From Tubulanus polymorphus (lineage: Eukaryota; Nemertea; Palaeonemertea; Tubulaniformes; Tubulanidae), in contig NC_134031.1 in NCBI RefSeq assembly GCF_964204645.1, positions 6,369,001 to 6,433,000 of the forward strand: a DNA stretch of 64,000 nt. Reading direction: 5' to 3'. A program made the position numbers and the translations under genes. This document shows positions 5,715-21,667 of the stretch, piece by piece. The stretch's first letter is position 1. Each line of letters opens with the position of its first letter. The notes below the pieces were generated by a model. It had not been told where the DNA came from, searched no databases, and saw only the letters and a list, made by a program, of their open reading frames with translations.

Positions 5715-5951
5715 TTAATTCTCCTCTCCTATAGTTTTGGACTTTCATTGGGCCCCCGATCCGTTCGGTGGCAACAATCGTGACAATGACGCCGTCTACA
5801 TTCATGGTCGCTTCGATCAACTCTTTTCGGGATTTCCGTCCGGTGAAACAGCACAGCCAGAAATTGATTCACGTACATCAACATCGCTGAAATAGCTTGG
5901 ACCAGAATCGAAAACTGTTCAAAATCGAGTTGTCGGTATACAGTAAACGGG
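5715..5951 (-). pseudogene. Receptor pseudogene (family E), TM6-C-terminal part, split by the Polinton
   Basis: Read on the minus strand, this continues exactly where 20435-20780 stops. It matches the TM6-TM7-tail region of the intact E receptor at 23522-24496 (for example the AISAMLMYVN and FHR/FTGRK regions). An 8-base deletion just after the MYVN codons shifts the frame in TM7, so this copy carries coding damage independent of the Polinton insertion. The 6-bp target duplication forms its inner edge. Confidence 0.8.
5946..5951. repeat. Left target-site duplication AACGGG
   Basis: Six bases immediately outside the left Polinton end. They are repeated exactly outside the right end at 20435-20440. 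Six-base duplications are the hallmark of Polinton integration. Confidence 0.95.
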
Positions 5952-6355
5952 AGTAGTATAGTCAGAGGGGGGTTCTGGCACAGCTAACTTTTGGGCTAAC
6001 TGTGCTAATGTGAGCTAACTTTGAGCTAATGTAAGCTAACTTTTGAGCTAATCTGAGCTAACTTTTGAGCTAATCTGAGCTAATGTCGGTTAACATCTGA
6101 GCAAACTTTTGAGCTAATCTGAGCTAATGTTGGTTAACATCTGAGCTAATCTGAGCAAACTGTTGAGCTAATGTGAGCTAATATCGGTTAACATCTGAGC
6201 TAATTTGAGCTAATGTCGGTTAACATCTGAGCTAATCTGAGCTAACATTGAGCTAATGTGAGTGAATGAATGTTAATACCGAGCTAATGTGAACTAGTTA
6301 TCGGGCTAATGTCTATGTGTTATATGGAGCTAATGTGGGTTAACTATTGAGTTAG
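5952..6355 (+). repeat. Left terminal inverted repeat of the Polinton (404 bp)
   Basis: Matches the reverse complement of 20031-20434 with no gaps and one mismatch (g6173). After a unique opening of about 40 bases it is built almost entirely from degenerate tandem units of GAGCTAAT, GAGCTAAC and GGTTAACATCT. Similarity stops sharply after GAGTTAG at 6355. Confidence 0.95.
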
Positions 6356-7186
6356 CTATTGAGCTAATGTGTGTTAATGTTGTGCTGATGAGGGTTAACA
6401 GCGGGTTGTTTATACTATTTCTGGTATATGAGTAAATTTCTGAAAGTATTGTGAAAGGGGGTACAGTAAAATCTGATAGAACAAAGTATATGTTATAAGT
6501 ATGGTATGATGATGTAATTATTTCGAGTGTTAATTAAACAGGGGAGACAAAACTATAAGTATAGCAAGATATTTTTTATTGAATGTGTCTGAAATGAATT
6601 CAACAGACAGGTGTGGATGTGATGGTGAATGTAGTCGAATAACAATAGGGGCTAACATGATAGTTGGGATATGCATCGAACCCAGATGACCTGTTAATGA
6701 GAATACAGAACAATAACACTCCGGTGTAATTTCGAGAGTTCCCACCGACGGTAATGGCATTTTTTCTCTTTATAATCTTCATTATGAATACTGGGTTCAA
6801 TGTGATTTATTAGGTTTTGCTTCCGAGAATACTATCATAAATGAATTTATCGTCGGACATCTGTATTGAAACTCCCTGTTCTTTTCAAAAAGTAATGTGT
6901 TCAGAAGGTATTATCTGTTTGTTTTATTCGTTTCTGTTGATGACTGTTTGACTGAATAGATAGTAATATAGATTTTCTACTCTGATGACCATCCCGGTGG
7001 TAAACCGTGAGAAAGTTTGAATATTCTCTTAACAGGGGGGTAAAACAGACATAGGTGGAGTGACAGTATTTAAAGAAACAATGAAGATCAATCACGTGAT
7101 TTAAAGTAGACCAATGGTATGATTCTGTGGTAACTTAAAAATTACGTTGATTGGTAAATTTTAACATCCTATTGTTGATCGAACAT
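6356..7186. other. Subterminal Polinton DNA, no gene recognised
   Basis: The first approximately 50 bases continue the GCTAAT-type repeats in degraded form. Two overlapping short minus-strand ORFs (6530-6760, 6600-6800) have no recognisable feature. No TATA-type promoter stands out. Confidence 0.4.
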
Positions 7187-7479: not shown

Positions 7480-7947
7480 TTACATTCTAATGAAATACTT
7501 GCTAACAAATTGTTTAACATAATAATCATTATACTCGTAATCAGTTTTACTAAAACTACTGAATATCTCGGGAAAACACATACCGTGTGAGAGAAGAGTT
7601 ACAAAATATATGCAATAATATCCGCAATTCGTACTAAACAAACTTTGTACTCTAACTCGAGAATAATCCCAGTAATGACAGTGTGTATCTAAATAGTTTC
7701 TTAATATAATATTATAGAATTGCGGTTGTTGTCCGTAACTATCTAGGAAATAACCTTGTTTATTTGCAAATATTATAAAACAAATCCAATGTTCTCCGCT
7801 CTTATCACTATTTTGAGAGTTTACAATGAAAATACTGGGATACTCAGGAGGTTCGGGTAAACGATCAGCTGCGTAGACACCTTTAAACAATTTGTTCGCA
7901 CAAGTATCTTCGCGCAAAATATTAATTAATTGATCGGTATACAACAT
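7480..7947 (-). CDS. Adenain-like cysteine protease (Polinton PRO)
   Basis: Capsid-maturation protease of the adenovirus endopeptidase (C5) family. The open frame extends up to 8100, but I choose the internal ATG at 7947. It starts four bases after the capsid gene's stop and opens with MLYTDQLINILRED, the usual beginning of Polinton proteases; the upstream extension would lie wholly inside the capsid gene. The product is 155 residues. The catalytic set is visible: His53 in GEHWICF, Asp69 in FLDSYGQQP, Gln101 in VQSLFS and Cys108 in STNCGYYC. In adenoviruses this enzyme cleaves capsid precursors after assembly; the same role is inferred here. Confidence 0.92.
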   Translation of the reverse strand: MLYTDQLINILREDTCANKLFKGVYAADRLPEPPEYPSIFIVNSQNSDKSGEHWICFIIFANKQGYFLDSYGQQPQFYNIILRNYLDTHCHYWDYSRVRVQSLFSTNCGYYCIYFVTLLSHGMCFPEIFSSFSKTDYEYNDYYVKQFVSKYFIRM

Positions 7948-7951
7948 CTTT

Positions 7952-9271
7952 TTAAAAATCTGTGACAACAGTGCGGTCTTTTGTAATTTCCAACACTTCA
8001 TCAAAGTTGGCGTATAATAGTAAATTAATATTTTCTGGTAGAGGTTTTGAAAATTCCAATTCCACGCGAAGGGAACCCTTTTTACTGATAGCCAGGTCAC
8101 TGAATCCGAAATCCGGTGTCAGATCGAATGCGGTTAGGAAATATCCGTTAGCATAATCTTTTCTGGTTATTCCAATTGTCTTATCTTGATATAAAATACC
8201 GGTGCCAGTGAACAATGAGAAATATCCTTCACTCAAGTCTTTCGACTCGAAATTTATTGCCGACGCTTCAACTTGCGACCCATTGATGGACACCGCAATT
8301 CTAGTGATATCATAGTGTTTAAAGTCGAACGGGTTTTTATCGTAACTTCCACTCAGCGATTCGTCCGAGCAGAATCCGATAATTATATTCCTCGGTAAAT
8401 TTCCAATTATCAGATTATCTCTTATAACACTGCGTACTCCACGTGGTATATTCACCGGAAAAATGCTTGTTTTTACAAAATGGTATTTGGCATTACTAGT
8501 AGCCAATGCTTTCTCATGCGCTAACTGAACTGACGGGCTTAGTTGTACTCGTCGCACATTTAATGTAGCGTTTTCAATTTTCACTTTGAACTTTACGTCT
8601 GGATTCGGGGACATTAAACAAAATGCATCCTTACTTCTGATTAACTTAACTTTAACCGTTACATTCGAGAGAAGTAGTTTATCTAGTCCGAACGCATCGC
8701 TGTGTAATCGAAGTTGCGCTTTTACGAGATTGTTCGGCTTTTTCAGTAAATCATAACGTTCTTTGAGACCCGAGTTACAATTCGCGCTTCTAGGATCTGT
8801 ATCGTTCATACGCCCGGCTTCGTCTTTATATATCATAGCACTTTCCATCCATCCCGGTTTCGTAGATGATTGACAAAATATCAAGTTCTCAATAGCGGCT
8901 CTAATCGGGTGTAAGTCCATTCCATTACTAATTAATTTGTCGTTGAATCGTACCTCGACGTCACTGAATAGTGACTGAGCGTAATTAATAAGGGTAGCTA
9001 CGGGATCATCTGCTTTGTCATTGTTCATCGGACTGCCATCGCCCTTTACAATTTTAAACGTTGCATCTAACCACGTGTGGTTTAAATCTAGATAATGTTG
9101 TGAGTTACCGGTTATAAGAAAATCGATATTTCCGCTATCCGTAATTGTAGCTAACGGTTGATATTTAGCATAATGTGCGGACTCCATAGTGATATTAGTC
9201 ATCGGCAGTGAAAAGATGTCCAATTCACTCTTGAGTGCAGGGTGCGAGTCTTTGTGTACTTTCAAACCCAT
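7952..9271 (-). CDS. Polinton major capsid protein (double jelly-roll, PY type)
   Basis: 439 residues, ATG at 9271. It belongs to the family often annotated as F54H12.2-like in animal genomes, which structure prediction and phylogeny have assigned to the double jelly-roll major capsid proteins. Seen here: the N-terminal block with ITDSGNIDFLITG and YLDLNHTWLDATFKI, the middle block DLHPIRAAIENLIFCQ, and a C-terminal LTPDFGFSDLAISKKGSLRVE region, all typical of the family. The frame is intact. It lies between the pVI-like gene and the protease, the usual Polinton order for the morphogenesis genes. Confidence 0.92.
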   Translation of the reverse strand: MGLKVHKDSHPALKSELDIFSLPMTNITMESAHYAKYQPLATITDSGNIDFLITGNSQHYLDLNHTWLDATFKIVKGDGSPMNNDKADDPVATLINYAQSLFSDVEVRFNDKLISNGMDLHPIRAAIENLIFCQSSTKPGWMESAMIYKDEAGRMNDTDPRSANCNSGLKERYDLLKKPNNLVKAQLRLHSDAFGLDKLLLSNVTVKVKLIRSKDAFCLMSPNPDVKFKVKIENATLNVRRVQLSPSVQLAHEKALATSNAKYHFVKTSIFPVNIPRGVRSVIRDNLIIGNLPRNIIIGFCSDESLSGSYDKNPFDFKHYDITRIAVSINGSQVEASAINFESKDLSEGYFSLFTGTGILYQDKTIGITRKDYANGYFLTAFDLTPDFGFSDLAISKKGSLRVELEFSKPLPENINLLLYANFDEVLEITKDRTVVTDF

Positions 9272-9334
9272 GTTATATCAGTGTTGATGTTGGCGATAAC
9301 AATGAAGATGTTAACAATGATAACGATCAGTTAA

Positions 9335-9727
9335 TTAATATGCTTCCAGGCTTTCGATTGTTCCACGTTGACGTTTCACCCGACGTCTATTCGACTTCGA
9401 TTTTACTTTACGTTTTCTCTGATTATTCGGGGCTTTTAATACATTTCGAACGGCTGTTTTACCGTTATTCAATAACGATTCTCCTAGATCTCTTCCACCA
9501 ATGACGTCACCTATTGTGTTGACACCGGCTTTAACTATATGTGGTGCTGCTTTCTTTGCAATTGTCTTAAACAAAGGGATCGCTCCCCTGAATAATCCTC
9601 CCAGAATAGATCCGATTCCTGCTCCTTTTTGTATCGGTCTACCGTGATAGAAATCATTCCCGCCACCCGCCTGCCGTAAATAATAATTACAGCAAGCGTC
9701 TTGATCTATGATACATTCGGTTTTCAT
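9335..9727 (-). CDS. Small virion protein, adenovirus pVI/pX-like
   Basis: 130 residues. The N-terminal part contains YYLRQAGGG, a glycine-rich turn with an aromatic residue, and YHGRPIQKGAGIGS. An amphipathic stretch follows (ILGGLFRGAIPLFKTIAKKA), then a strongly basic C-terminus (RKRKVKSKSNRRRVKRQR). This layout is shared by membrane-lytic or core proteins found next to the capsid genes in Polintons and adenoviruses. Its ATG overlaps the penton-like gene's stop as ATGA (9724-9727). A membrane-disrupting or DNA-condensing role is inference. Confidence 0.75.
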   Translation of the reverse strand: MKTECIIDQDACCNYYLRQAGGGNDFYHGRPIQKGAGIGSILGGLFRGAIPLFKTIAKKAAPHIVKAGVNTIGDVIGGRDLGESLLNNGKTAVRNVLKAPNNQRKRKVKSKSNRRRVKRQRGTIESLEAY

Positions 9728-10536
9728 AGTAACAACTTTCGTCTAAAATGTAACACGAGGGATACTTTGCCCCTTTTAAAGATGGGCGGAGTACCACTGT
9801 CCTTAAACATATAGATTTCAATAACGTCCAGTCGATTACTCCTGAGCGGAAGATAATAAGGTCGTCTAAATTCACGATCTATAACTGTTTGATTTATATC
9901 GTTTACACCTACAATCCTTAACAAAGGTGCGCTATCGTGTCCAACTTGTTGATGTTGAATTAACTCTGAATAGATTAAGATGTTATGATTATCGGCCATA
10001 AGGTCGACCGGTCTAGACGCTATGACCTCGACGTAGCCGAAGTTATCGGATGAACTTGCTTTTCCTATGATTTTAGTTTCGGTAATATCATCACTAAAAA
10101 TGTCGGCGTCGACTACATGCATCGAAGGGAAGCCCAACACCCAGGCTAATTCCTTCCTGAACTTAATTTTCGCGTTAGCGGATAATCTAATCGAAACTCG
10201 TTGGCTTATCTCATTATACATTAGTTGTATTTTATTCGCTGCCGGTGATCGCGTTATAACCGAGTTCACATGTTCTATCAATGTTTCGATATTTCTATAC
10301 ACACCGCCTGGCACGCTATACGCGTCACTCCATTGTCCATCACCAGAGTCCACATAAAATTCTCCAGTAATTACGTTGTCGAATTCGCAATTGAAATTTA
10401 TGTGAACTAACGCGACTTCCCAATTACCTTCTAGGTTAATCGTCCCTCTCAATTTAACTTTAAACTTTTCTTGAGAGTTTCCTGGAAATTCATCCACGCT
10501 TCCATCGCTCAATAATGTTAGATAAAAGTCATGCAT
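9724..10536 (-). CDS. Minor capsid protein (penton-like, PX type)
   Basis: 270 residues, ATG at 10536. It starts MHDFYLTLLSDGS followed by EFPGNSQEKFKVKL and ..NWEVALVHINF, the N-terminal signature of the Polinton minor capsid family, predicted to be a single jelly-roll penton. A LPLRSN..DVIEIYMFKD region lies near the C-terminus. The start overlaps the integrase stop by eight bases (ATGCATGA), and the end overlaps the pVI-like gene by four. Its place between integrase and the small virion protein is standard. Confidence 0.85.
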   Translation of the reverse strand: MHDFYLTLLSDGSVDEFPGNSQEKFKVKLRGTINLEGNWEVALVHINFNCEFDNVITGEFYVDSGDGQWSDAYSVPGGVYRNIETLIEHVNSVITRSPAANKIQLMYNEISQRVSIRLSANAKIKFRKELAWVLGFPSMHVVDADIFSDDITETKIIGKASSSDNFGYVEVIASRPVDLMADNHNILIYSELIQHQQVGHDSAPLLRIVGVNDINQTVIDREFRRPYYLPLRSNRLDVIEIYMFKDSGTPPIFKRGKVSLVLHFRRKLLL

Positions 10537-11623
10537 TCTTCTTCTTTAGTTCTCGTGCCGGAATCCACGAATTGAATTTCGTCGGGTATCCCAACCACTT
10601 CACGAGCAACTCGCGGTTTCTTCCTCGACCGCGTCTTCTTATAATCTTCTCCACTCGGTAAACATCGTCGTTTTTAATTACTTTTTGTAATTCGTGACGA
10701 TAGAATTGTCCCTGAACCTGCTCACCCATTTGATCTATAACGTTATATGTCGGTGGGTTGTGCGGGATCTGTTTTGAAACCGAGAATATTTCGTGCGACC
10801 ATCCGGGTAAATAACCCTTGTCGAAATCTTTCTTATATCTTGCGATTCTGACGGTATCCCCAATAGAAAACTTGTACTGTTTGTTCATAAGAGACTCTTT
10901 TCCGTATAGGTTTTCCCACACCAACTTCTCATTATTTTCACTAACTTGAGACGGGTTCATTTTTATCGACCTATGATACGAATTGTTGTAGGCATTTATA
11001 ATCTTAGGAAGAACATCTATATAGGTTTTCGTCTTGTACGCGGTCATATAGCGGAATAATCTTCCCTTTAACGTTCTGATGAATCGCTCGACAATACTAC
11101 ATTTCACTGTATCCTCGCTCGTAAAGTGATGAATGTTATACTTCTTTGTTATCTTACTAAAATATGCATTCAAAAATTCTTTGCCCTTATCACTTTGAAC
11201 TTTTTTCATACGACTTTTAATCGCTATACCTTCGAATGCGCTACTAACTTCTCCACCATTTTTCGACTTTAGGGGTATGGCGTAAGCGAATTTAGAAAAA
11301 ACGTCGATCGAAACCAGTAGATATTTAATTCCTTTATTATACTTAGATATATTCGATAAATCACACAAATCGATTTGATGCTGTTGATTGATACCGGATA
11401 CTATTGTTCTATTCCTCTTGAAACGCACGCGAGTAGGACGATGAAGCGTATATGCCTCTTGCGATTTCAGAAAGTCTCTAATAACGTCTATACCAATTTC
11501 ATTTCCGGACAGCTTCGCGGCGCGATGTAATGCATTCAAACCACCGAATGCGCTTGGGTTTTCTGGGTTGTAGTACAGGTTGTTCAGTATCTTTTTCAAG
11601 TCCGAGGTCAGGCGAGTCGACAT
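10529..11623 (-). CDS. Polinton integrase (rve fold) with C-terminal chromodomain
   Basis: 364 residues. Inserts the element's DNA and makes the 6-bp target duplication. The N-terminal region (about 10-80) has the Polinton pattern YYNPENPSAFGG...LHRAAK and YTLHRPTRVRFKRNR. The catalytic core shows Asp85 (QIDLCDLS), Asp145 (VQSDKGKEF) and Glu179 (SIVERFIR). An SH3-like segment follows (KFSIGDTVRI, about 251-260), and residues 320-360 form a chromodomain (YRVEKII...LLVKWLGYP...NSWIPARELK). The acidic triad and frame are intact, so it is probably functional. A chromodomain could steer insertion to marked chromatin (inference). Confidence 0.95.
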   Translation of the reverse strand: MSTRLTSDLKKILNNLYYNPENPSAFGGLNALHRAAKLSGNEIGIDVIRDFLKSQEAYTLHRPTRVRFKRNRTIVSGINQQHQIDLCDLSNISKYNKGIKYLLVSIDVFSKFAYAIPLKSKNGGEVSSAFEGIAIKSRMKKVQSDKGKEFLNAYFSKITKKYNIHHFTSEDTVKCSIVERFIRTLKGRLFRYMTAYKTKTYIDVLPKIINAYNNSYHRSIKMNPSQVSENNEKLVWENLYGKESLMNKQYKFSIGDTVRIARYKKDFDKGYLPGWSHEIFSVSKQIPHNPPTYNVIDQMGEQVQGQFYRHELQKVIKNDDVYRVEKIIRRRGRGRNRELLVKWLGYPTKFNSWIPARELKKKNA

Positions 11624-11733
11624 CGTCTTTCACTTTTGACTGTTGCACACAACACGAAATGTTGAATTTTTTACAATTAATGTTAATGAGCGATTGCGGT
11701 AAACAATCAGACTTCATCATTTCGTTATCCCGA

Positions 11734-12270
11734 TTATTCACACATATGCATATTGAACAACACATGCGGCAACACCGAAATCATCTGCTTTAAAGATTTA
11801 CACCCGCTAATAATCACACATCCCTTATGTTGTATTATAAATGTAACATTTCCACAGCGAGATATGAGGCTGGGGGTGATCTCCGGATCATATCGCCCAC
11901 CTAATAACGTGTGTAGTTGGGATAAGTTAACTTTAATTCCCGTTCTCGCAACACCTGTCATTGTTTGAATTTTAAATTCTGTCAATCTAACGGCGGCAGT
12001 GGTATTAATCTTTTGTATCAATCTAGCAAATCGTCGCACACTGGTATAACTCTCGCTGGATGACTTTGCTCCGTTACATACTATTCTCCCGCTTGCGAAT
12101 AATAGACACGTGCCCCTGATGCGCTTATTCCTAAGAATTAATGCGTTAAATTTACGAGGGTTGTACACTACGTTTGACATTGTCCTAGACAACTCCTCTA
12201 GATTGAGCTTACAATTAAGATTTGCAGTCGCTACTACATTAACAACGTCGATCATTTCTGATGTTACCAT
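11734..12270 (-). CDS. TATA-binding-protein homologue carried by the Polinton
   Basis: 178 residues, about the length of the TBP core alone, with an in-frame stop a few codons upstream of the ATG at 12270. Two TBP repeats are readable. Repeat 1 (about 8-88) includes NVVATANLNCKLNLEEL, YNPRKFNALILR, CLLFASGRIVCNGAKS and RRFARLIQKI, very close to eukaryotic TBP. Repeat 2 (about 96-170) includes FKIQTMTG, YDPEITPSLISR and CVIISGCKS and is more diverged. Of the four phenylalanines that TBP wedges into TATA DNA, those of repeat 1 are present (Phe41, Phe58). Those of repeat 2 appear replaced (Thr132, Gln147). It sits 110 bp upstream of the integrase on the same strand. It probably redirects or replaces host promoter recognition at the element's own genes (inference). 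It lacks the long N-terminal arm of animal TBP. Confidence 0.88.
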   Translation of the reverse strand: MVTSEMIDVVNVVATANLNCKLNLEELSRTMSNVVYNPRKFNALILRNKRIRGTCLLFASGRIVCNGAKSSSESYTSVRRFARLIQKINTTAAVRLTEFKIQTMTGVARTGIKVNLSQLHTLLGGRYDPEITPSLISRCGNVTFIIQHKGCVIISGCKSLKQMISVLPHVLFNMHMCE

Positions 12271-12354
12271 TACGAGAACTAGATACTAAATGAACTTGGA
12301 TAAAATGAGATAGAATCTAAATTTTCTCCATTCATTCTCTTTCAGATATAGATC

Positions 12355-12520
12355 ACTCGACGACAACGACGACGACGACGTATATTAGAATTTCAAACTT
12401 ACATTAGATTCATCAAAACGTATCAAGACAATCGAATAAAAAAGGTAATCCGATGATAAATTAGCTTTATCATTATTATTATTATTACTATTATTATTAT
12501 CATTATATTCTACAAATACA
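12355..12520. repeat. Microsatellites between Polinton genes
   Basis: A GAC/GACG-type trinucleotide run near 12357-12380 and an ATT/ATC trinucleotide run near 12468-12505. They fill the 266-bp gap upstream of the TBP-like gene. No other gene or signal is seen. Confidence 0.7.
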
Positions 12521-12536
12521 CTAAACAAAAATATGT

Positions 12537-13274
12537 TCACATATAAATCCAATTTTCGAAATCTATATCTTTAGAATTTTTAGATGGCGTAGTCATCCTC
12601 CTCCTCTTCGTCATCTTTGCTTCGAATTCATTCTTAACGTTCGGGCGATTGTTAATTAATTTATTTCTAACGAATTTATTCGGGATAAACGTCTGTGGAA
12701 CGGACATATCTTGTAATGCCTTGATGAAATCGTCGAGTCCGTTCATTTGTTGAGACTTGTTAGGTGTCATGCAGAGATTGATTAAATCGACGATATTACT
12801 ATCATCTCTTTTGACACCTTTTACTATTATCTCCCCCTTATCGGTCCATGACAATATTTCGGAATATCGCTTTATTCGCTCCAATAACATTTCCGATTTC
12901 TTTCTATAGTTTTTCGGTACGTTATTCAAAATTTCCTGGTCGAATTCACTTTTAGTTTCGGTAGTTCGTTTTAAATCACGATCGGTATTCAATGCACTGC
13001 TTTTACTTACTATGTTAGAATTAGTGATCGTCGACTCCTTTGAATGTTTTTCGATTTGCATTAGTTTATTCAACGCGTCGTTATACATCTTCAATTTCAC
13101 GTCGTCCTTCACATCATTATCCATTTGAAGGATATCGGACATTTGACTTTCTATATTTTTCACGCGATTCGTTTCACCACTCGAAGATTCTCGCTTGTCA
13201 TCGGTTGATGTGATTTTTTCAATCATGGGAATAAATGATCCCGGAACAACGTAAAGTTTTTCAACGTTCTTCAT
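12537..13274 (-). CDS. Conserved Polinton protein of unknown function (245 aa)
   Basis: It begins MKNVEKLYVVPGSFIPM. A charged, probably coiled middle (about 35-110) follows. Then comes a more conserved block, about 118-200: LNNVPKNYRKKSEMLLERI, ILSWTDKGEIIVKG, DSNIVDLINLCM and DDFIKALQDMSVPQTFI. The block recurs next to capsid genes in many animal Polintons, from general familiarity with such elements. The C-terminus has a basic MTKRRRM segment that may be a nuclear-localisation signal. Its ATG overlaps the previous gene's stop (ATGA, 13271-13274). A virion or scaffold role is possible but not shown. Confidence 0.75.
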   Translation of the reverse strand: MKNVEKLYVVPGSFIPMIEKITSTDDKRESSSGETNRVKNIESQMSDILQMDNDVKDDVKLKMYNDALNKLMQIEKHSKESTITNSNIVSKSSALNTDRDLKRTTETKSEFDQEILNNVPKNYRKKSEMLLERIKRYSEILSWTDKGEIIVKGVKRDDSNIVDLINLCMTPNKSQQMNGLDDFIKALQDMSVPQTFIPNKFVRNKLINNRPNVKNEFEAKMTKRRRMTTPSKNSKDIDFENWIYM

Positions 13275-13597
13275 TCCATAAACCCGAGTAGTCGACCGAT
13301 TCCTTTCAGTATCAGTCCAAGGAAACCGCCTTTTTGCACGATTAATGATTTTTTCGATTTAATCGGTACTCGTCTATTAGCGAGAATTCGAATCCACTTC
13401 TTATGTCGCTTCAATTTCTTTTTATCCGATTCGCTGTGTTTGATATTCCCTCTTAATGAATTTATACAGACTTCGCAAATAACTTTCACTAATCTGTTCG
13501 ACGATGATGACAGAATCGCATCGCGCATATTTTTCTTTCCATCGCATAAAAGTCTTAAGTGAGGAGCGAATTCCTTCAAATGCAAGTGGTTCCTCAT
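13271..13597 (-). CDS. Conserved small Polinton protein, basic with hydrophobic tail (108 aa)
   Basis: Pattern: PHLRLLCDGKKNMRDAIL, then VKVICEVCINSLRGNI, then a basic middle (KKKLKRHKKWIRILANRR) and KKSLIVQKGGFLGLILKGIG at the end. This layout recurs in animal Polintons, where QKGGF precedes a hydrophobic end; the function is unknown. The final segment is short for a membrane anchor but could be membrane-active. It starts 33 bp after the ATPase ends and overlaps the 245-residue gene by four bases, suggesting a common transcription unit with the ATPase. Confidence 0.7.
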   Translation of the reverse strand: MRNHLHLKEFAPHLRLLCDGKKNMRDAILSSSSNRLVKVICEVCINSLRGNIKHSESDKKKLKRHKKWIRILANRRVPIKSKKSLIVQKGGFLGLILKGIGRLLGFME

Positions 13598-13630
13598 TTT
13601 ATCAATTGACGATGTTCGCGTGAAATTACA

Positions 13631-14278
13631 TTATTTAATACTTTTTATCTTATAATAAATATGATATCCCTCGCTGGGAAATATTCGTGTGCGTAATCTC
13701 CATTTGTCCGACGTTTGTGGTTTGAAATCACAAAATAGATATCCACGCGGTGAAATTGAGGTCGCATCTGTAAACGCCTCCTCGAGCGATTTACCTAACC
13801 CGGACTGCATCGCTAAAGTCTTTACTTGGAGTCGATCCCTCGGATGCTTGAATAGAACTATATAATGCGTGTTTAACGATATTGTCCGAAAATGAGGTCC
13901 TCTCGGGAAAAGGGTTTGCGATATTAGAATCACTTGAAGTTTTCTATGATGACTACCACGTGTAAAAATGGTCTCCAATAATTTGGGGTCGCACTCGTTC
14001 AATACATCATCCAAAATAAGTAGTTTTGTTGTCTCTGAACCTGACAAACTTTCGTACAATTCCTCTGTTAAACCCTTAATAAACTCAACTCCCTCTGTAT
14101 CGTGATAGATTTCCTGATCTTCGGCGTACACCCAAACTATACGATCGGGAAATGGATCGAACATTCTTTCTTCAATCAATCTTTTAGTAAAGACTGTCTT
14201 CCCGATACCAGTCATTCCATTGATAATCGACGTGAACCATCCTTGCAATTTAGTCGGCGGTAAATCAGCTATTTCCAT
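13631..14278 (-). CDS. Genome-packaging ATPase (FtsK/HerA type, A32-like)
   Basis: 215 residues, ATG at 14278. Drives DNA into capsids in related viruses. Walker A is GMTGIGKT (21-28), Walker B is LLILDD (86-91), and a polar sensor ISQ lies at 119-121. A conserved FTRGSHHRKLQVILISQ run is visible. Its length is normal for Polinton ATPases. It is divergently arranged with the DNA polymerase; their start codons are separated by 122 bp (14279-14400), which must hold both promoters. Confidence 0.93.
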   Translation of the reverse strand: MEIADLPPTKLQGWFTSIINGMTGIGKTVFTKRLIEERMFDPFPDRIVWVYAEDQEIYHDTEGVEFIKGLTEELYESLSGSETTKLLILDDVLNECDPKLLETIFTRGSHHRKLQVILISQTLFPRGPHFRTISLNTHYIVLFKHPRDRLQVKTLAMQSGLGKSLEEAFTDATSISPRGYLFCDFKPQTSDKWRLRTRIFPSEGYHIYYKIKSIK

Positions 14279-14400
14279 TGCCCCCTTTTACCACAGATTA
14301 ACAGAATCAAAATTAACAGCGATCTATCCAAAACACGTTCATTTTAAAGATTATTATCCACACATTATATTTATTTCTGTCTTCCTTTCTTTTTCTTTAG
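14279..14400. promoter_or_regulatory. Divergent promoter between ATPase and DNA polymerase
   Basis: 122 bp between two divergent start codons. It is AT-rich and contains CATTATATTTATT (about 14362-14374) pointing towards the polymerase. It ends in a long pyrimidine run with TTTAG directly before the polymerase ATG, which reads like a splice acceptor and leaves open a spliced 5' leader. Confidence 0.5.
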
Positions 14401-14942
14401 ATGGCACAGAAACAAGTATCAGAACGACTCAGCTTAGGACCAGTCGCCCTACCCAAGCGGTATGGGTGCACAATGTGCGAGCTGGTGTTCGCACACGCCA
14501 GCTCGAGATCCCGGCACATTAACCGGGTGCACAAAAAGAGTAAACCGCTTTGTGCCAAATGCGGGGAGGGGTTTAGCACGACGGCCTACCGGGACAGGCA
14601 CCAATCACGTTGTGCGAGACCCCTCCCAATCCCAGCGGCACGACGGCGACTGGTCCTTGAAGCACCGGCACCGCCAGCAGCAGCAGTAGGGGCGCCGCCA
14701 GCAGCAGCAGTGCCAGCAGCAGCAGTAGGGGCGCCGCCAGCAGCATCAGTGCCAGCAGCAGCAGTGCCAGCAGCAGTATTGCCAGCAGCAGCAGTAGGGG
14801 CGCCACCAGCAGCATCAGTGCCAGCAGCAGTATTGCCAGCAGCAGCAGTAGGGGCCCCACCAGCAGCAGCAGCAGTGCCAGCAGCAGCAGTGCCAGCAGT
14901 AGTAGGGGCACCACCAGCAGCAGCAGGGGCACCACCAGCAGC

Positions 14943-14986
<44 letters not shown>

Positions 14987-17900
14987 GGGCACCACTGGAA
15001 TGGGAATGGGAAGAGTTACCGGATCTTGATGAGGAAACTCTTGCCCTCATCGGGATCCGGCAAGGTGGCGCCTTAGAGGGGTATGTACGAAAATACGAGT
15101 TCCCATCCACTGAAAACAACAAGTTTGATTTAATTAAATTTTATAACGATATCAAACCGCATCTCATCCGACTGCTTAAAGATGATTTAAGTAGATTGGG
15201 TGGGATAAAATGGTTTACCAGCATTCATATAATTTTAGAAAAAGATATCGATGGTGTCCATCAACAAAGGACTGTGTATTTTACTAGCCACACTCGAAGT
15301 GCTTTCAATGGTGAACAATTTGACGAGCTCTTGGATCAGGCTAAGAATAAAATGATCCAATTATTGGAACAATACAATACTGAGGGTACTGGTTGGAGGT
15401 TTGATTATGTCGAAGTGTTCGATCTACACGTCGGCATATATGAACCATTAGGTGGAGGTTCGTATATACCCTCTCCTCGTGTAATCGTTTCACGAGGAGG
15501 GGTTATAAATATCCAAAATTTCGACAATATGTGCTTTCTTTGGTCTATACTCGCCCACCTCCACCGAATGGACACGAACCCCCAACGAGTATCTAAGTAT
15601 TTACGGTACAGAGACGAATTGAATATGAACAATATCAATTATCCAGTAACCGTAGAACAAATACCCATTTTCGAACAGCAAAACGATATATCAGTTAACG
15701 TATTTGCCTATGAGGATGGAAATATTTTTGTTCGTCGTTTGAGTGATAATCCACGCGCAAATCATGTTAATTTATTATTACTAGTTGATAACGATAACGC
15801 CCATTATTGTTTGATAAATGACCTTAGTAAATTCCTTTTCCATCTAAACAAAAAGAAAGCCAAATGTTTTTGGTGTTTTAAGTGCATGCACTCTTTTTTA
15901 TCGCAAGAAAATCTTGATGTTCATACTCGGTACTGTATTCAAGGAATACAAAAGACAATCATGCCACCGACAGATGAGAATGTCTTGAAATTTGTTAATG
16001 TCACAAAACAGCACAAACTGCCATATGTGATATATGCTGACTTCGAAATGTTTTTAGAACCGATTGAGGGGTGTAAATTGAACCAGAATCAATCTTGGAC
16101 ATATCGTTATCAGGTTCATGAACCGTGTGGATTTTGTTTTAAAGTCGTTGGCCCTGACACCAGACATTCCCATCCGACAGTCCTTTATAGAGGAGACGAT
16201 GTTATGAAGAAATTCTTAACATCCCTCCTCGAAAAAGCAGAGGAAATATTAAAGGAATACAAAAATCCTCAACCTTTGGTTATGAACGACGTCGATGAAA
16301 CACACTTCAAATCAACTGATATTTGTCATATATGTAAGGAAACCATAAATGGTAAGAAATGTCGGGATCACGATCATATAACCGGCAAATACAGAGGCCC
16401 AGCTTGTAATTCATGTAATCTGAGTTATAGGGTTCCTAATTTCATACCTGTGATATTTCATAACTTGAAAAGTTATGACAGTCATGAAATTATTAGATCA
16501 TTGGGCTTGGTTGAATTTAGGGGGTATAGAATTTCAGTGATCCCGACGAACACTGAAAAGTTTATCGGATTTACACTTGGTCCCCTACGCTTCATCGACT
16601 CGTTGGCATTTCTCAATACCTCTCTCAGTACTCTTACAGAAAATTTGGTCAATTCGGGTAGAGAGAAATTCATTCATTTAAACTCGGAGTTCCCCGCCAA
16701 TAAACTTGATCTTTTATTACGTAAAGGTGTTTACCCATACGACTACATGACAGGTTCGGAGAAATTTAATGAGACAAGTCTCCCTCCTAAGGAGGCATTT
16801 ACCAACACCCTGACGAACACTGAAATTTCGGTAGATGACTACAAACATGCACAGAATATTTGGTCGCAGTTTAACATGGCAAACATGGGCGAGTATCACG
16901 ATCTCTATCTTAGAACCGACGTATTGCTACTTTCAGATATTTTCGAGGAATTCCGCAAGTTCGCTCATAAGAGCTACGGATTAGATCCTTGTCATTACTA
17001 CACTCTACCCGGCTACTCATGGGATGCCTGCTTGAAACTGACAAAAGTCGAACTTCAATTGTTCACTGAAGTCGATATGTATTTGTTCATAGAACAGGGG
17101 ATACGCGGCGGAATATCTGTTATTACCCATCGATATTTCGAGGCTAATAACAAGTATTTCGCCGATTACGACGAGGCCAAGGAGTCATCTTATATCATGT
17201 ATTTAGATGCTAATAATCTGTATGGGTGGGCAATGTCTCAGGCATTGCCTGTTGGTGAATTTAGGTGGTTAGAAACAGAAAACGATCCCCTTTGGCCCGA
17301 CGCTCAGGATATTTTAACGATGACGGACGACGCCCATTTCGGCATGATACTCGAAGTGGACCTTGAATACGGTGCCGAGTTACACGATCTACATAACGAT
17401 TTACCGTTAGCTCCGGAGCGCATGTTAGTCAACGAAGATTTAATGTTATCTCCGTATCAAAAGCTTCTATTTCAGACTTTGAAACTATCGTCCAGCAAGA
17501 TACACAAGCTTATCCCTAATCTTTACAATAAAACTCGGTATATTGTTCATTATAGGAATTTGAGGCTTTACATGAAACTTGGTATGAAATTAACAAAGAT
17601 TCATCGTGTTCTCCATTTTCGACAATCAGCCTGGATGTCACCGTACATTGCTTTGAATACCGAATTCCGAAAAAATGCGAAATCCAATTTTGAGAAAGAT
17701 ATGTACAAATTACTGAATAATGCAAGTTTTGGCAAGACAATGGAGAACATTAGGAATCGAATCAACTACCAAATTATTAACGAACCGGGGAAATTGAGAA
17801 AAGCTCTAGCGAAGCCATCTACGATTTCATGGAACATTATTTCGGAGAATGTTGTGGGGGTAAAAAAACAGCAGATTTCGATCAAGTTGGATAAGCCTGT

Positions 17901-18513
17901 GTATCTTGGCTTTTCAATTTTAGACATAAGCAAAACGTTAATGTATGATTTTCATTATAACACCATCAAGGCAGGATACGGGGATAACGCTAAACTTCTT
18001 TTTACAGATACGGATAGTTTAACGTACGCTATTCGCAGCAACGATTTGTACACGGATATGGCGGGGATTTCCGACCAGTTCGACTTTTCAGCCTATCCCA
18101 CCGGCCATCCTTTATTCTCGGACAAAAATAAGAAAGTACTAGGCAAATTTAAGGATGAGACCAATTCTTTTCCCGTTAAAGTGTTCTGCGGTTTACGGAG
18201 TAAGATGTATTCAATGACATATCTTTCTCCGGATAACAACGGAACACTTGTGGAAAAGAAAACTGCAAAAGGTGTTGCGAAGTACGTCGTTAAGCAGTCC
18301 GTATCCCATAATAACTACGTTGATTGCTTGCGTAATCAATCACGTATGATGGCTAACATGCGGTCTATCCGGAGCTTCAATCATAAGTTACATTCAGTTA
18401 ATTTAAATAAAGTCGGATTATCACCATACGACGACAAACGTTATATACTAGATGATGGTGTAAGCACATATGCTTATGGTCATCATAAAATTCCGGAGAT
18501 AAATCATCATTAA
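14401..18513 (+). CDS. Protein-primed family B DNA polymerase (Polinton pPolB), 1370 aa
   Basis: Replicates the element. N-terminus: two C2H2/C2HC fingers (Cys23, Cys26, His39, His44; Cys51, Cys54, His67, Cys71), then an Ala/Pro-rich low-complexity tract (about 86-195). Next is a region with Cys378 (NMCFLWSIL) and His468 (AHYCLI) resembling an OTU/papain-like fold. Another CxxC finger lies near 489. The exonuclease motifs are Asp547/Glu549 (YADFEMF), Asp733 (FIDSLAF) and Asp840 (RTDVLLLSD). Between Exo I and Exo II is an endonuclease-VII-like zinc site (Cys642, Cys645, DHDHITGKYRGPAC, Cys672). Polymerase motif A is LDANNLYGWAMS (Asp936), motif B KLLNNASFGKT (1103-1113) and motif C DTDS (Asp1203, Asp1205). 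All catalytic residues are present. The ATG follows a pyrimidine-AG, so an upstream noncoding exon is possible. Confidence 0.96.
14660..14990 (+). repeat. In-frame GCA/GCAGCC repeat encoding Ala/Pro-rich linker
   Basis: Within the polymerase gene. It has irregular units ending in GGGGCGCCRCCAGCAGCA and a final run of about fifteen alanine codons. GC-rich compared with its neighbours. It encodes a flexible linker between the N-terminal fingers and the rest of the protein, and its length probably varies between copies. Confidence 0.85.
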
Positions 18514-18963
18514 AAGAACAAGTCGTTATACTTAATATATATTTGCATATCTTTATTTATTCATAGTTATAAACATTGATTTATTTACACTCACTTATAC
18601 ATGCGTTTATGTTTTCAGTTTTACTTTAAACTATTTAACTAATATATATATTTATTTATTTATCTTATCTATTTATTTAAGATTATATGAAAGTTGGTAA
18701 ACCATTGGTTTAATATCGTTATAAGTGTTTTCTATATTTCTTTTTATTTCAGGGATGGGATCTAACTCGTACCCCCTCTAAGCGCACCTTTTCCCGTTTT
18801 TTTTTTTTTCTTCCTTTTCTACTTTTTTATGCCAATTTCCCTATAATTCTTTTTTAAAATAAATAAAGAAAAAACCAGCATTTGATTATTAACATAATTC
18901 ATGACTTTAGTTTTTGATATTTATCTATATATGGATTGAGGATACAGGAGATACATATATTCA
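18514..18963. other. AT-rich convergent intergenic region
   Basis: Lies between the converging 3' ends of the polymerase and the PC4-like gene. Contains several TTTATTTATT runs, a poly-T at 18799 and an AATAAATAAAGAA at about 18860 that can serve as the polymerase poly(A) signal. No ORF of interest. Confidence 0.6.
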
Positions 18964-19814
18964 TTAATCATCGATTTGGAATACAGGATGAGGATTACAG
19001 TAAACACACTGGAGAGCACCCATCTGATTCTGATGATCATCATTGAACATACACGCTTTCATCCCAACGAGTTCAGGTTCCAAATCAACGAAAGAAATAT
19101 TCATCAGTTTCTCCCACTGTTTTTCAGATAGTTCTATCCCGGTTTTCGTATGAACTCGTTGTTCCGTTGCAGCTATATAACAAAAATATCTAATGTCGAT
19201 TATAACCTTATTGAAACGTTTGAACACGGTCACGTATCGGTTCCTACCGACGTGTAATCGAAAATCCTCTATGATATTATTGTTATTGTTGCTTTCATTA
19301 AACGAATTGATGGCGGAATTTATGGAATCTCTATGCCAGTCGAGATTAGCCCATTCTTGCAGGTGTAGGCTAATGCCGCGTTTCGTTGGAAATAATCGAA
19401 GGTCATCACTGAGTTCATAAGTTCGTATGTCAACACGTTTAACATCCTGCCACTCGCTGACACACGCAAACACTAAATTGCCCAGATAATGACGTTTCAC
19501 ATCCGCTTTCGCATAGACGTATTCTTCTTTAGACTCACTCAGTTTTATATCCGTTTGTACACAAGCATTCTCTTTAACAACCGTATCTATGACAAAAGAA
19601 AAGATAATATGGTTACATTACAAGTGAAACAATAAATAACTCAAAGGAGGAGAGGATGTTTTACAAACAAACAAATTAATTACACATACATACCAGGCTT
19701 AGCAGCGTTAATATCTAGCTTTAAATTCTTGAAATTCAGTCTTCGAGGCCTCTTTTTTGGAGCATCAGGTTCAGACATGTTTCGTTTCAACACGGGAGTT
19801 GTGTGCGTATCCAT
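18964..19814 (-). CDS. Spliced gene for a tandem PC4-like (SUB1-like) protein
   Basis: Two exons: 19694-19814 (ATG at 19814) and 18964-19586. The 107-bp intron has donor CTG|gtatgt and acceptor catag|AT; the join keeps frame and gives 247 residues. The N-terminus has a basic KKRPRR, a possible nuclear signal. Domain 1 (about 74-125): LVFACVSEW..VKRVDIRTYEL...FPTKRGISLHLQEWANL, the positive-coactivator-4 pattern. Domain 2 (about 149-205): RLHVGRNRYVTV...VIIDIRYF....HTKTGIELSEKQWEKL, a second PC4-like fold. PC4 binds single-stranded DNA and promoter complexes as a dimer, so one chain with two copies could act as a built-in dimer (inference). The C-terminus has a CVYC pair. The first exon contains no other upstream ATG in frame. 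Confidence 0.85.
19587..19693 (-). other. Intron of the Polinton PC4-like gene
   Basis: 107 bp, GT-AG, between codon 40 (phase 1) and its completion. Without splicing, the long frame (from 19586 down) has no ATG before the first PC4 domain. The exon 1 frame cannot reach it, so the intron is needed to make a full protein. Confidence 0.8.
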
Positions 19815-19854
19815 GATCAACTCAACGAATGAAATCACCTTTGGAGAACACACG

Positions 19855-19876
19855 TTATATACCCCTCATGACGTCA
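19855..19876 (-). promoter_or_regulatory. TATA box and CRE-type site upstream of the PC4-like gene
   Basis: On the minus strand, TATATAA (19855-19861) lies about 41 bp before the ATG. A perfect palindrome TGACGTCA (19869-19876), the CREB/ATF consensus, lies just upstream of it. The spacing suits a compact promoter. This is the clearest TATA element found in the Polinton. Confidence 0.6.
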
Positions 19877-20030
19877 GATATTTTTCAGAACGAGGATCGT
19901 AATCATCGAAACAATTGATAATTTGCATATGTTTATATTCATCCAGATCTAACCATATTCAAATGATCTCGTTTATAAATTTCACACACACCAGCTCAAT
20001 AGATTACCATAAAAACCGGTAACTAAATAC

Positions 20031-20434
20031 CTAACTCAATAGTTAACCCACATTAGCTCCATATAACACATAGACATTAGCCCGATAACTAGTTCACATT
20101 AGCTCGGTATTAACATTCATTCACTCACATTAGCTCAATGTTAGCTCAGATTAGCTCAGATGTTAACCGACATTAGCTCAAATTAGCTCAGATGTTAACC
20201 GATATTAGCTCAGATTAGCTCAACAGTTTGCTCAGATTAGCTCAGATGTTAACCAACATTAGCTCAGATTAGCTCAAAAGTTTGCTCAGATGTTAACCGA
20301 CATTAGCTCAGATTAGCTCAAAAGTTAGCTCAGATTAGCTCAAAAGTTAGCTTACATTAGCTCAAAGTTAGCTCACATTAGCACAGTTAGCCCAAAAGTT
20401 AGCTGTGCCAGAACCCCCCTCTGACTATACTACT
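20031..20434 (-). repeat. Right terminal inverted repeat of the Polinton (404 bp)
   Basis: Reverse complement of 5952-6355, differing only at 20213. It ends CTCTGACTATACTACT next to the AACGGG duplication. Confidence 0.95.
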
Positions 20435-20440
20435 AACGGG
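20435..20440. repeat. Right target-site duplication AACGGG
   Basis: Identical to 5946-5951. Confidence 0.95.
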
Positions 20441-20780
20441 AATGACGGAACAAAGAAAATGAAATTCGTTGTCACAAGCATTGAGGTGATACTGCTGGTG
20501 ACGGCTGATGTCTGTGATTGTCTGTCTGCGAGACTCGGCTCGTTTTAGAAAGTAGATGATGATGGCGTTGGAGATGAGAAGTACCGCGAATGGCGCTGCA
20601 CTGACTATACCTAGATGTATGTTAAACCAATACCGGGTCCAGAAAACCGAATAGACCCCTTCCCGTATGTGGCAGGAAAGAAATCCACAAAAATATGTAA
20701 TTTGATGGCAAATATTAGAACAATGAGTACTACAGAAGCGTAGATCATTCTAGCGCGCATCGGAGCGACGACCGACACGC
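20435..20780 (-). pseudogene. Receptor pseudogene (family E), ICL2-TM6 part, split by the Polinton
   Basis: On the minus strand it matches the E receptor from VSVVAPMRAR (end of TM3/ICL2) through TM5 (SAAPFAVLL) to TM6, where the Polinton enters. Small indels against the intact E copy shift the frame around ECL2 and in ICL3, and the 5' part (TM1-TM3) is missing beyond 20780. This copy was already a pseudogene fragment, whatever the order of damage. Confidence 0.8.
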
Positions 20781-20856
20781 ATCATGATTAATATCATGAA
20801 GGGAAAACCCACAATATATTCAAAACAACTGCTCTGGTTTTTTCCCAGACGTTTCC

Positions 20857-20965
20857 ATCCTCCCGTGGCAGGGTTCGAACCTGATGGCATCGCTACACTC
20901 AGCCACGGCACGAACCGTGGCAATCACGATGCCATCAGGTTCGAATCCCTGCCGCGGGAGGATGG
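20857..20965. repeat. Palindromic tRNA-like mobile hairpin, copy 1
   Basis: Arms of about 37 bases, CATCCTCCC..GGTTCGAACC.. and its inverse GGTTCGAATCCCTGCC.., around a short loop. Each arm contains a B-box-like GGTTCGAAYC. Flanking 9-mers GACGTTTCC (20848-20856) and GACATTTCC (20966-20974) look like a target duplication with one change. A second copy is at 49294-49402. Confidence 0.65.
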
Positions 20966-20974
20966 GACATTTCC

Positions 20975-21667
20975 GGTGTTCGGGTGGATTACTTCCGCCC
21001 ATCTTCAGAGTTTATTTCAAATTTCAAATAAACTCTGAACATGCGGTAGCAAGTATTCAACCGGAAACGTTAGAAAAGAAAACAAGAGCTGTGGGTTTTT
21101 TCTCTTCATGACCGCTCCGTGTGTGTTTAATCTTAGTCGTTTATCACTTATTTCTCCTTTCTCTCAATTTTGGTCTTTTGTCATTGTTATAAACGACAGC
21201 ACCGTTCAATCATGATAAGATTACCTTTTATTTCTTGTTCATATTTGTTTCGGAGATTCGTCAACGGGGAATAACTATAATAATGGGCAGTGATTTAGTG
21301 ATGTATGAAAGCAACTTTTCACAAATCAAACTTATTCGTGTATTTAGAATTCGCGCGTTGGTTCGGGATAAAAGCGATTTGACGACGAATCAATTCGTAA
21401 CACAAATTGTAGAACCACTGAGTGGGCAAACATCGAAATGCATCATCAAACAGGACAGTTGTTGCTTTATTCATCGAATGAAAGCCCATCTGAAAAATCA
21501 TTTTCAACCGCGTTTTTATAATCGGGAAGTCCGGCGCGTCAGTGTTGTCAGTTGTCGATGAGCCCACAACTGAAACGCGCGTATCTTCGGAACGAGGACC
21601 ATAACGGAACAACCAGGAAAAGTGCAGACTTTGATACTAATACCATCGACTAAACATTCATTGAGAA
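20975..21667. other. Spacer upstream of a receptor pseudogene
   Basis: Contains an adjacent inverted pair of TTTATTTCAAATT-type sequence near 21009-21035 and otherwise no supported gene. A 108-codon plus-strand ORF (21235-21561) has no recognisable motif. Confidence 0.4.

What the first reader, a model, noticed from the sequence alone, without database searches (positions are those of the whole stretch)
11734..19814. A Polinton that carries both a TBP homologue and a tandem-PC4 gene
Seen: within one intact Polinton, a 178-residue protein with two readable TBP repeats (11734-12270) and a spliced 247-residue protein with two PC4-like domains (18964-19814). Known: TBP nucleates pol II/III initiation at TATA promoters and PC4/SUB1 is a coactivator that binds single-stranded DNA and the initiation complex. 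Polinton core genes do not include either as far as I know. Inference: the element brings its own promoter-recognition and promoter-melting helpers to drive late or early genes with host RNA polymerase, a virus-like transcription strategy not described for Polintons to my knowledge.
Basis: partly seen in the sequence, partly recalled or inferred. Interest (0 to 1): 0.9.

Follow-up and report, generated by a model that had tools for sequence, protein, structure and literature searches.

The report
Polinton carrying TBP and tandem-PC4 genes
A virus-like jumping element in a ribbon-worm genome carries its own altered version of the cell's master promoter-finding protein and a double single-strand-DNA-binding type protein, and several lineages of the element have kept both genes intact under selection.

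Summary
A 14.5 kb Polinton (duplication AACGGG, 415-nt inverted repeats with 4 mismatches) at 5946-20440 in the nemertean Tubulanus polymorphus encodes a two-repeat TBP homologue (11734-12270, minus; PF00352 E 1.4e-33) and a spliced tandem-PC4 protein (18964-19814, minus; PF02229 E 2.5e-17) with a conserved Cys-His-Cys-Cys tail. In this genome 14 of 24 TBP loci have PC4 within 15 kb and 12 also a capsid gene. Four diverged lineages keep both genes under purifying selection (finite omegas 0.08-0.25; most pairs saturated), so they are not decayed passengers. One lineage has PC4 at the other end; the window lineage has another PolB type. The TBP keeps the N-lobe DNA-binding Phe pair and host-factor patch (15 of 15 rows) but lacks the C-lobe L5.1 Phe (11 of 11). 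Most likely it redirects host Pol II to the element's TATA-less promoters; the tandem PC4 is at least as likely a replication single-strand-binding protein as a coactivator. All function is inferred. Outside this genome I found PC4 relatives and one weak TBP candidate, never the pair. The papers I could search do not report either gene in a Polinton; key reviews were not held.

The parts
5946..5951 (.). left copy of 6-bp target-site duplication AACGGG
   Evidence: direct reading
5952..6366 (+). left terminal inverted repeat, 415 nt
   Evidence: 4 mismatches of 415
7480..8001 (-). adenain-like protease (PRO)
   Evidence: Peptidase_C5 E 0.0011, below Pfam cut-off; conserved in place in families B and C
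7952..9271 (-). major capsid protein gene, named from place and from homologues in the other Polinton families (recalled gene order)
   Evidence: no Pfam hit; 42 matches in the genome, merged to 31 loci; 40% identical to families B and C
9335..9727 (-). basic Polinton protein PX, function unknown
   Evidence: conserved in families B, C, D
9724..10536 (-). probable minor capsid (penton-like) protein; label recalled
   Evidence: conserved in families B, C, D and in L086
10529..11623 (-). integrase with rve and chromo domains
   Evidence: PF00665 2.9e-9, PF00385 1e-8
11734..12270 (-). TBP homologue, 178 aa, two TBP repeats
   Evidence: PF00352 1.4e-33, two stretches; alignments; tree
12537..13274 (-). 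unknown protein U12537
   Evidence: conserved in families B, C, D
13271..13597 (-). small basic protein with QKGGFL motif, U13271
   Evidence: conserved in B, C, D and in L086
13631..14278 (-). packaging-type ATPase
   Evidence: weak P-loop hits from 7.2e-5 (NB-ARC) to 0.035, incl. Pox_A32 0.0033 and Adeno_IVa2 0.012, all below cut-offs; 50-54% identical to B, C, D
14401..18513 (+). PolB, 1370 aa, with N-terminal C2H2-like fingers (by eye) and an endonuclease VII-like stretch
   Evidence: Endonuclease_7 2.8e-6; 31.7% tblastn match to L086; polymerase motifs recalled; E 0.016 alignment with the DNA_pol_B_2 protein of L085 around TDTDS
18964..19586 (-). exon 2 of the tandem-PC4 gene: both PC4 domains and the C-H-C-C tail
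19694..19814 (-). exon 1 of the tandem-PC4 gene; intron 19587-19693
   Evidence: similar N-terminal parts in paralogues
19851..19864 (-). TATA block of the PC4 promoter (GGGTATATAACGTG on the minus strand); the TATA starts 47 nt before the ATG
   Evidence: block shared with the diverged A2 lineage
19868..19876 (-). TGACGTCAT block upstream of the TATA block
   Evidence: shared with A2
20020..20434 (-). right terminal inverted repeat
20435..20440 (.). right copy of target-site duplication AACGGG

Best explanation
The element is an animal Polinton whose lineage took up two genes for nucleic-acid-binding factors and made them part of its lasting gene set. The TBP homologue is a promoter-selectivity factor: its N-lobe grips DNA and docks on host regulators, its C-lobe stirrup still carries one of the two Glu contacts for TFIIB, and its altered C-lobe DNA face releases it from strict TATA recognition, so that host TFIIB/Pol II is brought to the element's own TATA-less promoters. 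The tandem-PC4 protein is a covalent PC4 dimer with a zinc-type tail that coats single-stranded DNA. It is made early, from a host-type TGACGTCA + TATA promoter (window and A2 lineages), and serves strand-displacement replication by PolB, possibly also promoter opening. SHOWN: the genes, their families, linkage, co-inheritance, purifying selection, residue patterns, and shared PC4 promoter blocks. INFERRED: DNA targets, TFIIB use, order of expression, dimer, zinc, replication role.
For: Profile hits over curated cut-offs with two repeats each. 14 of 24 TBP loci have PC4 within 15 kb, 15 of 24 an MCP, 12 of 24 both (merged from the matches). B-C is the closest pair for 10 of 10 proteins; of the eight scored in all four families, seven have A as the most distant (U12537 is the exception, D being about as far), so TBP and PC4 follow the core genes. 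Purifying selection: TBP omega 0.08-0.20 in the 8 of 21 pairs with a finite value, PC4 exon 2 0.08-0.25 in 10 of 36; pairs with dS below 1 give 0.15 (TBP, 1 pair) and 0.10, 0.11, 0.17 (PC4, 3 pairs). PC4 lies at the protease end in family B but is kept. Residues in 15 Polinton rows, some of them near-copies: N-lobe Phe pair 15 of 15, N-lobe Asn 15 of 15, H2 triad R-R-K/R 15 of 15; in the 11 rows that reach the C-lobe stirrup, C.L3.4 Glu 11 of 11 and L5.1 Phe replaced by Q (3) or H (8). PMC7221094 (passages) ties C.L3.2/C.L3.4 to TFIIB, the basic N-lobe patch to host regulators and L5.1 Phe to TATA binding. TATAWA is not enriched upstream of the element's genes, while the PC4 promoters of A and A2 share GGGTATATAACGTG and TGACGTCAT; 0 of 20,000 mononucleotide shuffles shared a 14-mer, a control that does not allow for common descent. 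Protein-primed viruses encode their own SSBs (PMC8276246, passages).
Against: No expression, binding or structure data; structure prediction never ran (13 busy replies). C.L3.2, the other TFIIB contact, is N in 8 of 11 rows (lineages A2, B, C), D in 2, E in 1. No shared promoter motif was found for the TBP to recognise. The ssDNA-contact residue recalled from human PC4 as W89 is not aromatic in either domain of the window protein (alignments). The TATA box is not general even for PC4: 5 of 19 distinct PC4 upstream sequences have TATAWA within 90 nt, no shuffle control run; family B has none, family C has an ATATAAA box at -84 and a GACGTCAT in another order, and for family D I did not find exon 1.
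Confidence: 0.5

Rival explanations
1. One reading: TBP and PC4 are a pair of initiation helpers, both acting at the element's promoters (recognition plus melting/coactivation) with host RNA polymerase.
For: Both belong to families of the pol II initiation machinery and are co-inherited in at least four families.
Against: The two are not always together: 4 of 31 MCP loci have PC4 but no TBP within 15 kb, and 4 have TBP but no PC4; some may be decayed or cut. PC4 lies beside PolB or next to the inverted repeat, which I take as a place for replication genes (inference). PC4 relatives outside this genome were found without any view of a TBP partner (their surroundings could not be read).
Confidence: 0.25
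2. The TBP is a decoy: it keeps the surfaces that bind host regulators and TFIIB but has lost full TATA binding, so it titrates host initiation factors and dampens host transcription or antiviral response.
For: Host-facing patches (H2 R-R-K/R 15 of 15, C.L3.4 Glu 11 of 11) are conserved while the C-lobe L5.1 Phe is lost in 11 of 11 rows.
Against: The N-lobe DNA-binding residues are conserved in 15 of 15 Polinton rows, which a pure decoy would not need; purifying selection over the gene.
Confidence: 0.15
3. Captured host genes or decayed passengers without a function for the element.
For: Some copies are broken: 10 of the 22 Polinton-type TBP loci lack an open frame of 177 aa or more (host loci set aside), and one of the 12 long frames (L031) has a changed C-terminal end.
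Against: 12 of 22 have long frames; omega far below 1 between lineages where it can be estimated; one clade apart from host TBP and the TLF-like gene; same place between U12537 and INT in families A, B, C, D.
Confidence: 0.03
4. The TBP serves host Pol III (through Brf) rather than Pol II for some element transcripts.
For: PMC7221094 (passages) states that Brf1/2 use the same TBP surface as TFIIB.
Against: Element genes are protein-coding and one is spliced; no Pol III promoter was looked for.
Confidence: 0.05

Closest known systems
Polintons / Mavericks (adintovirus-type elements)
   Same: 14.5 kb, inverted repeats, 6-bp duplication, integrase with chromodomain, PolB-like, packaging-ATPase-like, adenain-like and capsid genes.
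   Different: Adds TBP and tandem-PC4 genes as lasting members of the gene set. A second, diverged Polinton family of the same genome (L086) shows neither in the 9 kb read, nor any match within 15 kb in the genome-wide searches.
TBP-like proteins of large DNA viruses incl. poxviruses, and of mirusviruses (PMC7221094, PMC10132985; passages only)
   Same: A DNA virus-like element coding for a two-lobe TBP homologue.
   Different: According to PMC7221094, viral TBPs keep the L5.1 Phe in about 90% of sequences, lose the N-lobe host signature, and almost all come with a viral TFIIB (none found in poxviruses). Here the N-lobe basic triad is kept, the C-lobe L5.1 Phe is lost, and no TFIIB-like match shows among the ten element proteins or the PC4 protein; the genome-wide TFIIB search did not complete.
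Animal TBP paralogue TLF/TBPL1 (TRF2)
   Same: A TBP relative with altered stirrup Phe residues, expected to read non-TATA promoters.
   Different: The TLF-like gene of this host (named by likeness) has Trp at the N-lobe L5.1 and His for the first C-lobe Phe, and keeps the C-lobe L5.1 Phe (L034); the Polinton TBP keeps the N-lobe and changes the C-lobe, and forms its own clade.
Human PC4/SUB1
   Same: PC4 by profile; PDB hits 6ycs, 4usg and 1pcf E 0.001-0.0015.
   Different: Two PC4 domains in one chain plus a C-terminal C-H-C-C tail, shared with P0011-P0016 including an oyster protein with a CARD domain.
SSBs of protein-primed viruses (phi29, Bam35; PMC8276246, passages)
   Same: Small element-encoded ssDNA binder in a protein-primed type of replication (proposed here).
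   Different: Those SSBs are described as divergent OB-fold-like, not PC4-fold.

Membership tests
Polinton/Maverick | long terminal inverted repeats and 6-bp target duplication | tested here: met
   415-nt arms, 4 mismatches; AACGGG on both sides
Polinton/Maverick | retroviral-type integrase | tested here: met
   rve 2.9e-9 and chromo 1e-8, both over cut-off
Polinton/Maverick | protein-primed PolB | tested here: inconclusive
   no Pfam PolB hit for the window protein; 31.7% to L086; motifs recalled; families C and D carry PF03175, family B the same type by eye
Polinton/Maverick | adenain-like protease, packaging ATPase | tested here: inconclusive
   hits at 0.0011 and from 7.2e-5 to 0.035, all below curated cut-offs
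Polinton/Maverick | double jelly-roll major capsid protein | not tested
   no Pfam hit; no structure model of it was asked for, and the two models asked for never ran
TBP (PF00352) | profile match over cut-off with two lobes | tested here: met
   115 bits vs 22.9, two stretches
TBP (PF00352) | four DNA-intercalating Phe (recalled; L5.1 from PMC7221094) | tested here: not met
   N-lobe pair 15 of 15 rows; first C-lobe Phe F in 7, T in 3, L in 1 of 11; C-lobe L5.1 Q in 3, H in 8 of 11
TBP (PF00352) | acidic C.L3.2 and C.L3.4 contacts for TFIIB | tested here: inconclusive
   C.L3.4 Glu 11 of 11; C.L3.2 N in 8, D in 2, E in 1 of 11; mapping of the names to residues is my inference
TBP (PF00352) | binding of DNA and TFIIB | not testable with these tools
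   needs protein assays
PC4 (PF02229) | profile match over cut-off, two domains | tested here: met
   62.5 bits vs 25, two stretches
PC4 (PF02229) | single-stranded DNA binding | not testable with these tools
   needs protein assays; Arg of the DIR motif invariant in both domains of nine nemertean rows, W89 not kept in the window protein
replication SSB of a protein-primed element | stimulates PolB strand-displacement synthesis | not testable with these tools
   inference from fold and place only

The most novel reading that the evidence does not exclude
A clade of animal Polintons runs its own transcription switch: a half-TATA TBP variant, neither an orthogonal viral TBP/TFIIB system nor the host TBP, re-aims the host initiation machinery to element promoters, while a PC4 dimer made early from a host-type promoter doubles as replication SSB. 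To my knowledge it would be the first general transcription factor from the Polinton/adintovirus branch of the Bamfordvirae, and an intermediate between host-dependent small viruses and large viruses that bring their own initiation factors.
Probability: 0.3. Interest if true: 0.85.

Novelty: new variant of a known kind. Interest (0 to 1): 0.68.

Why it matters
Polintons are thought to depend on host transcription (recalled). A TBP kept for long under selection in several Polinton lineages would mean that control of initiation by a virus-encoded general factor reaches down to 14 kb elements, and gives a natural test of which TBP surfaces matter: host-factor docking kept, C-lobe DNA face changed. 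The tandem-PC4 gene is a candidate for the unknown single-strand-binding protein of Polinton replication, which can be tested directly.

Tried and rejected
Chance or artefact: rejected, both profiles are far over cut-off and recur at many loci. Decayed passengers: rejected by selection and synteny. A shared promoter motif for the TBP: counts of three TATA-like patterns and of shared 7-mers lay within the range of shuffles in sets A-D (11, 7, 7 and 4 upstream regions; some gene starts in B-D set by eye), and the aligned stretches upstream of TBP and INT showed no clear block. Relatives in IMG/VR: all 8 scans used; none encoded a relative of the TBP, PC4, capsid, PolB or P0007 queries; one contig matched a PolB motif, and its record had no TBP match. 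Protein database: the TBP query gave 7 hits, most archaeal-looking to me (an impression, not tested); the single PC4 sequence gave none; the PC4 profile gave 9. Rows: the matches (41 TBP; 71 PC4; 42 MCP), which the tool calls lower bounds, were merged by hand to 24, 45 and 31 loci. Two TBP loci are host genes; two of the three C9 loci were not fetched and are counted as Polinton-type by likeness only; the best PC4 match (C5) is presumed to be the host gene and was not checked. One search used 15 Polinton rows; the fetched loci L019 (identical to the window copy), L020, L035, L036 and L037 (broken or partial) were left out.

Literature: polinton + TATA-binding protein, 3 papers, two read in passages and not about TBP in Polintons, the third seen in the listing only; polinton + PC4, 0 papers; further searches (65 and 111 list only 20 of 957 and 20 of 49). 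Term finds in PMC10120064, PMC10328495, PMC4642659 and PMC6431247 gave 0 for TBP and PC4; in PMC12220804 TBP gave 0 and PC4 was not asked. Three papers I wanted are not held, so absence from print is not proven.
Full report
1. Observation. The window is G000:C7:6369001-6433000 of a 268 Mb, 77-contig genome. Three proteins found with the PC4 profile are named by NCBI as Tubulanus polymorphus (Nemertea) and lie on contigs of 21,623,276 and 32,063,560 bases, the lengths of G000 C7 and C1, so the host is very probably this ribbon worm. An element of 14.5 kb has 415-nt inverted repeats with 4 mismatches and AACGGG on both sides. The 178-aa ORF 11734-12270 is on the minus strand and matches TBP at E 1.4e-33 with two stretches. 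The spliced gene 19814-19694 + 19586-18964 gives 247 aa and matches PC4 at 2.5e-17 with two stretches.

2. Gene set. From left to right: protease-like, capsid gene, PX, minor-capsid-like, integrase, TBP, two unknown proteins, ATPase (all minus strand), PolB (plus strand), tandem PC4 (minus strand). The integrase is over the Pfam cut-off; protease and ATPase are below it; the capsid genes have no Pfam match and are named by place and conservation.

3. Recurrence. TBP gave 41 matches in this genome, PC4 71, the capsid protein 42, all lower bounds. I merged them to 24, 45 and 31 loci. Of 24 TBP loci, two are host genes: canonical TBP (L017) and a TLF-like gene (L034). 14 of 24 have PC4 within 15 kb, 15 of 24 a capsid gene, 12 of 24 both. 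Of 31 capsid loci, 11 have both TBP and PC4, 4 TBP only, 4 PC4 only, 12 neither. A copy on C6 is identical to the window copy over the two stretches compared (1,601 and 1,801 bases), so the family moved recently.

4. Lineages. Family A (window) and A2 (C8:7.78) are 69% identical in TBP. Families B (L081), C (L084) and D (L085) keep the order ATPase, U13271, U12537, TBP, INT, mCP, PX, with MCP and PRO also read in B and C. B-C is the closest pair for 10 of 10 proteins, and family A is the most distant for seven of the eight scored in all four families, TBP and PC4 included. The PC4 gene is at the PolB end in A, C and D but beyond the protease in B. The PolB of D and C matches PF03175 (2e-44 and 2.8e-21); that of B looks of the same type (L088). 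The window PolB found no tblastn match in L084 or L085 and aligns with the D enzyme only at E 0.016. So PolB was probably exchanged while TBP and PC4 stayed.

5. Selection. Nei-Gojobori estimates on open frames: TBP omega 0.08-0.20 for the 8 of 21 pairs with finite values (12 saturated, one without synonymous change), PC4 exon 2 0.08-0.25 for 10 of 36 (26 saturated). Pairs with dS below 1 give 0.15 for TBP (one pair) and 0.10, 0.11, 0.17 for PC4 (three pairs). Twelve of the 22 Polinton-type TBP loci have an open frame of 177 aa or more; in one of these, L031, the C-terminal end is changed.

6. What the TBP looks like. The six Polinton TBPs in the tree form one group (95/96 support) on a branch of 0.82, apart from host TBP, the TLF-like protein and plant TBP; P0007, from a 21.7 kb contig of unknown origin, is a weak sister (81/68); 4 of 13 inner branches are unresolved. 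At positions recalled as DNA contacts, the N-lobe Phe pair and Asn are kept in 15 of 15 Polinton rows. In the C-lobe the L5.1 Phe is Q or H in 11 of 11 rows that reach it, the first Phe is F in 7, T in 3, L in 1, and the Asn is T in 14 of 14. The basic helix triad is R-R-K/R in 15 of 15. Of the two acidic TFIIB contacts one is Glu in 11 of 11, the other N in 8, D in 2, E in 1. Several rows are near-copies, so these are five lineages rather than 15 independent cases. In PMC7221094 (passages) viral TBPs keep L5.1 Phe in 90% of sequences, lose the N-lobe host signature, and usually come with a viral TFIIB. The Polinton protein has close to the opposite pattern, so I expect it to use host TFIIB and regulators.

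7. What the PC4 protein looks like. Two PC4 domains are followed by a tail whose C, H, C, C are invariant in nine nemertean sequences and in relatives from an oyster (with a CARD domain) and from sequences without a named source. A short first exon was found for 27 of 39 PC4 loci searched (one of them weakly, E 0.022); family D was among those without. Upstream of the ATG, A and A2 share TGACGTCAT and GGGTATATAACGTG. TATAWA lies within 90 nt of the ATG in 11 of 27 loci, 5 of 19 distinct sequences; family C has it at -84 with a GACGTCAT in another order, family B has none. No other gene of the window element has TATAWA within 150 nt, and sets A-D show no excess over shuffles.

8. Mechanism. I take TBP as a selectivity factor for TATA-less element promoters acting through host TFIIB and Pol II, and PC4 as an early ssDNA-binding protein for strand-displacement replication that may also help at promoters. 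Protein-primed viruses are known to bring their own SSBs (PMC8276246, passages), and PC4 is said to have roles in transcription and replication (PMC9409219, abstract start in the listing). All steps beyond sequence are inferred.

9. Limits. Structure prediction and the PolB and TFIIB genome searches never ran. No eukaryote genome other than the host was open to me, so the spread of the pair among animals is unknown. A second Polinton family in the same genome (L086) shows neither gene in 9 kb, so the pair is a trait of one clade in this genome.

Noticed in passing
L077 1217-6528; also L078/L079 and L080: Palindromic derivatives of these Polintons: a PC4 gene in inverted copies at both sides (in L078/L079 and L080 with protease remains); in L077 the arms are 2,516 nt and 99.8% identical. 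They look like snap-back products of terminal replication that were integrated.
   Followed up: partly
window 14401-18513; L084 90-869; L085 3-2147; L088: Two very different PolB types within one Polinton clade: DNA_pol_B_2 type in families C and D (and by eye B), another type in the window family, while the other genes are co-inherited.
   Followed up: partly
L086 3517-3981: A second Polinton family of this genome (capsid 31% identical) carries a dUTPase (PF00692, 2.9e-27) beside the protease and no TBP or PC4 in the 9 kb read.
   Followed up: partly
P0013 (oyster Saccostrea cucullata): A CARD domain fused to the tandem-PC4 plus C-H-C-C module on a 24 kb contig; Polinton gene, host nucleic-acid sensor or gene-model fusion.
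   Followed up: no
window about 11640-11730; L081 about 3280-3405; L084 about 5320-5455: Short Cys-rich reading frame just upstream of the integrase start, alike between families (by eye).
   Followed up: no
window 7194-7340, plus strand: ATG-led His/Arg-rich frame ending at a splice-donor-like AAG|GTAAGC between the left inverted repeat and the protease gene; possible extra spliced gene or leader (by eye).
   Followed up: no
window 14586-15050: The N-terminal part of PolB has long Ala/Pro repeats (GAPPAAAVPAA) after the finger motifs.
   Followed up: no
window 20520-37174: Several single-exon GPCR-like genes around the insertion (by eye); the element seems to sit in such a stretch.
   Followed up: no
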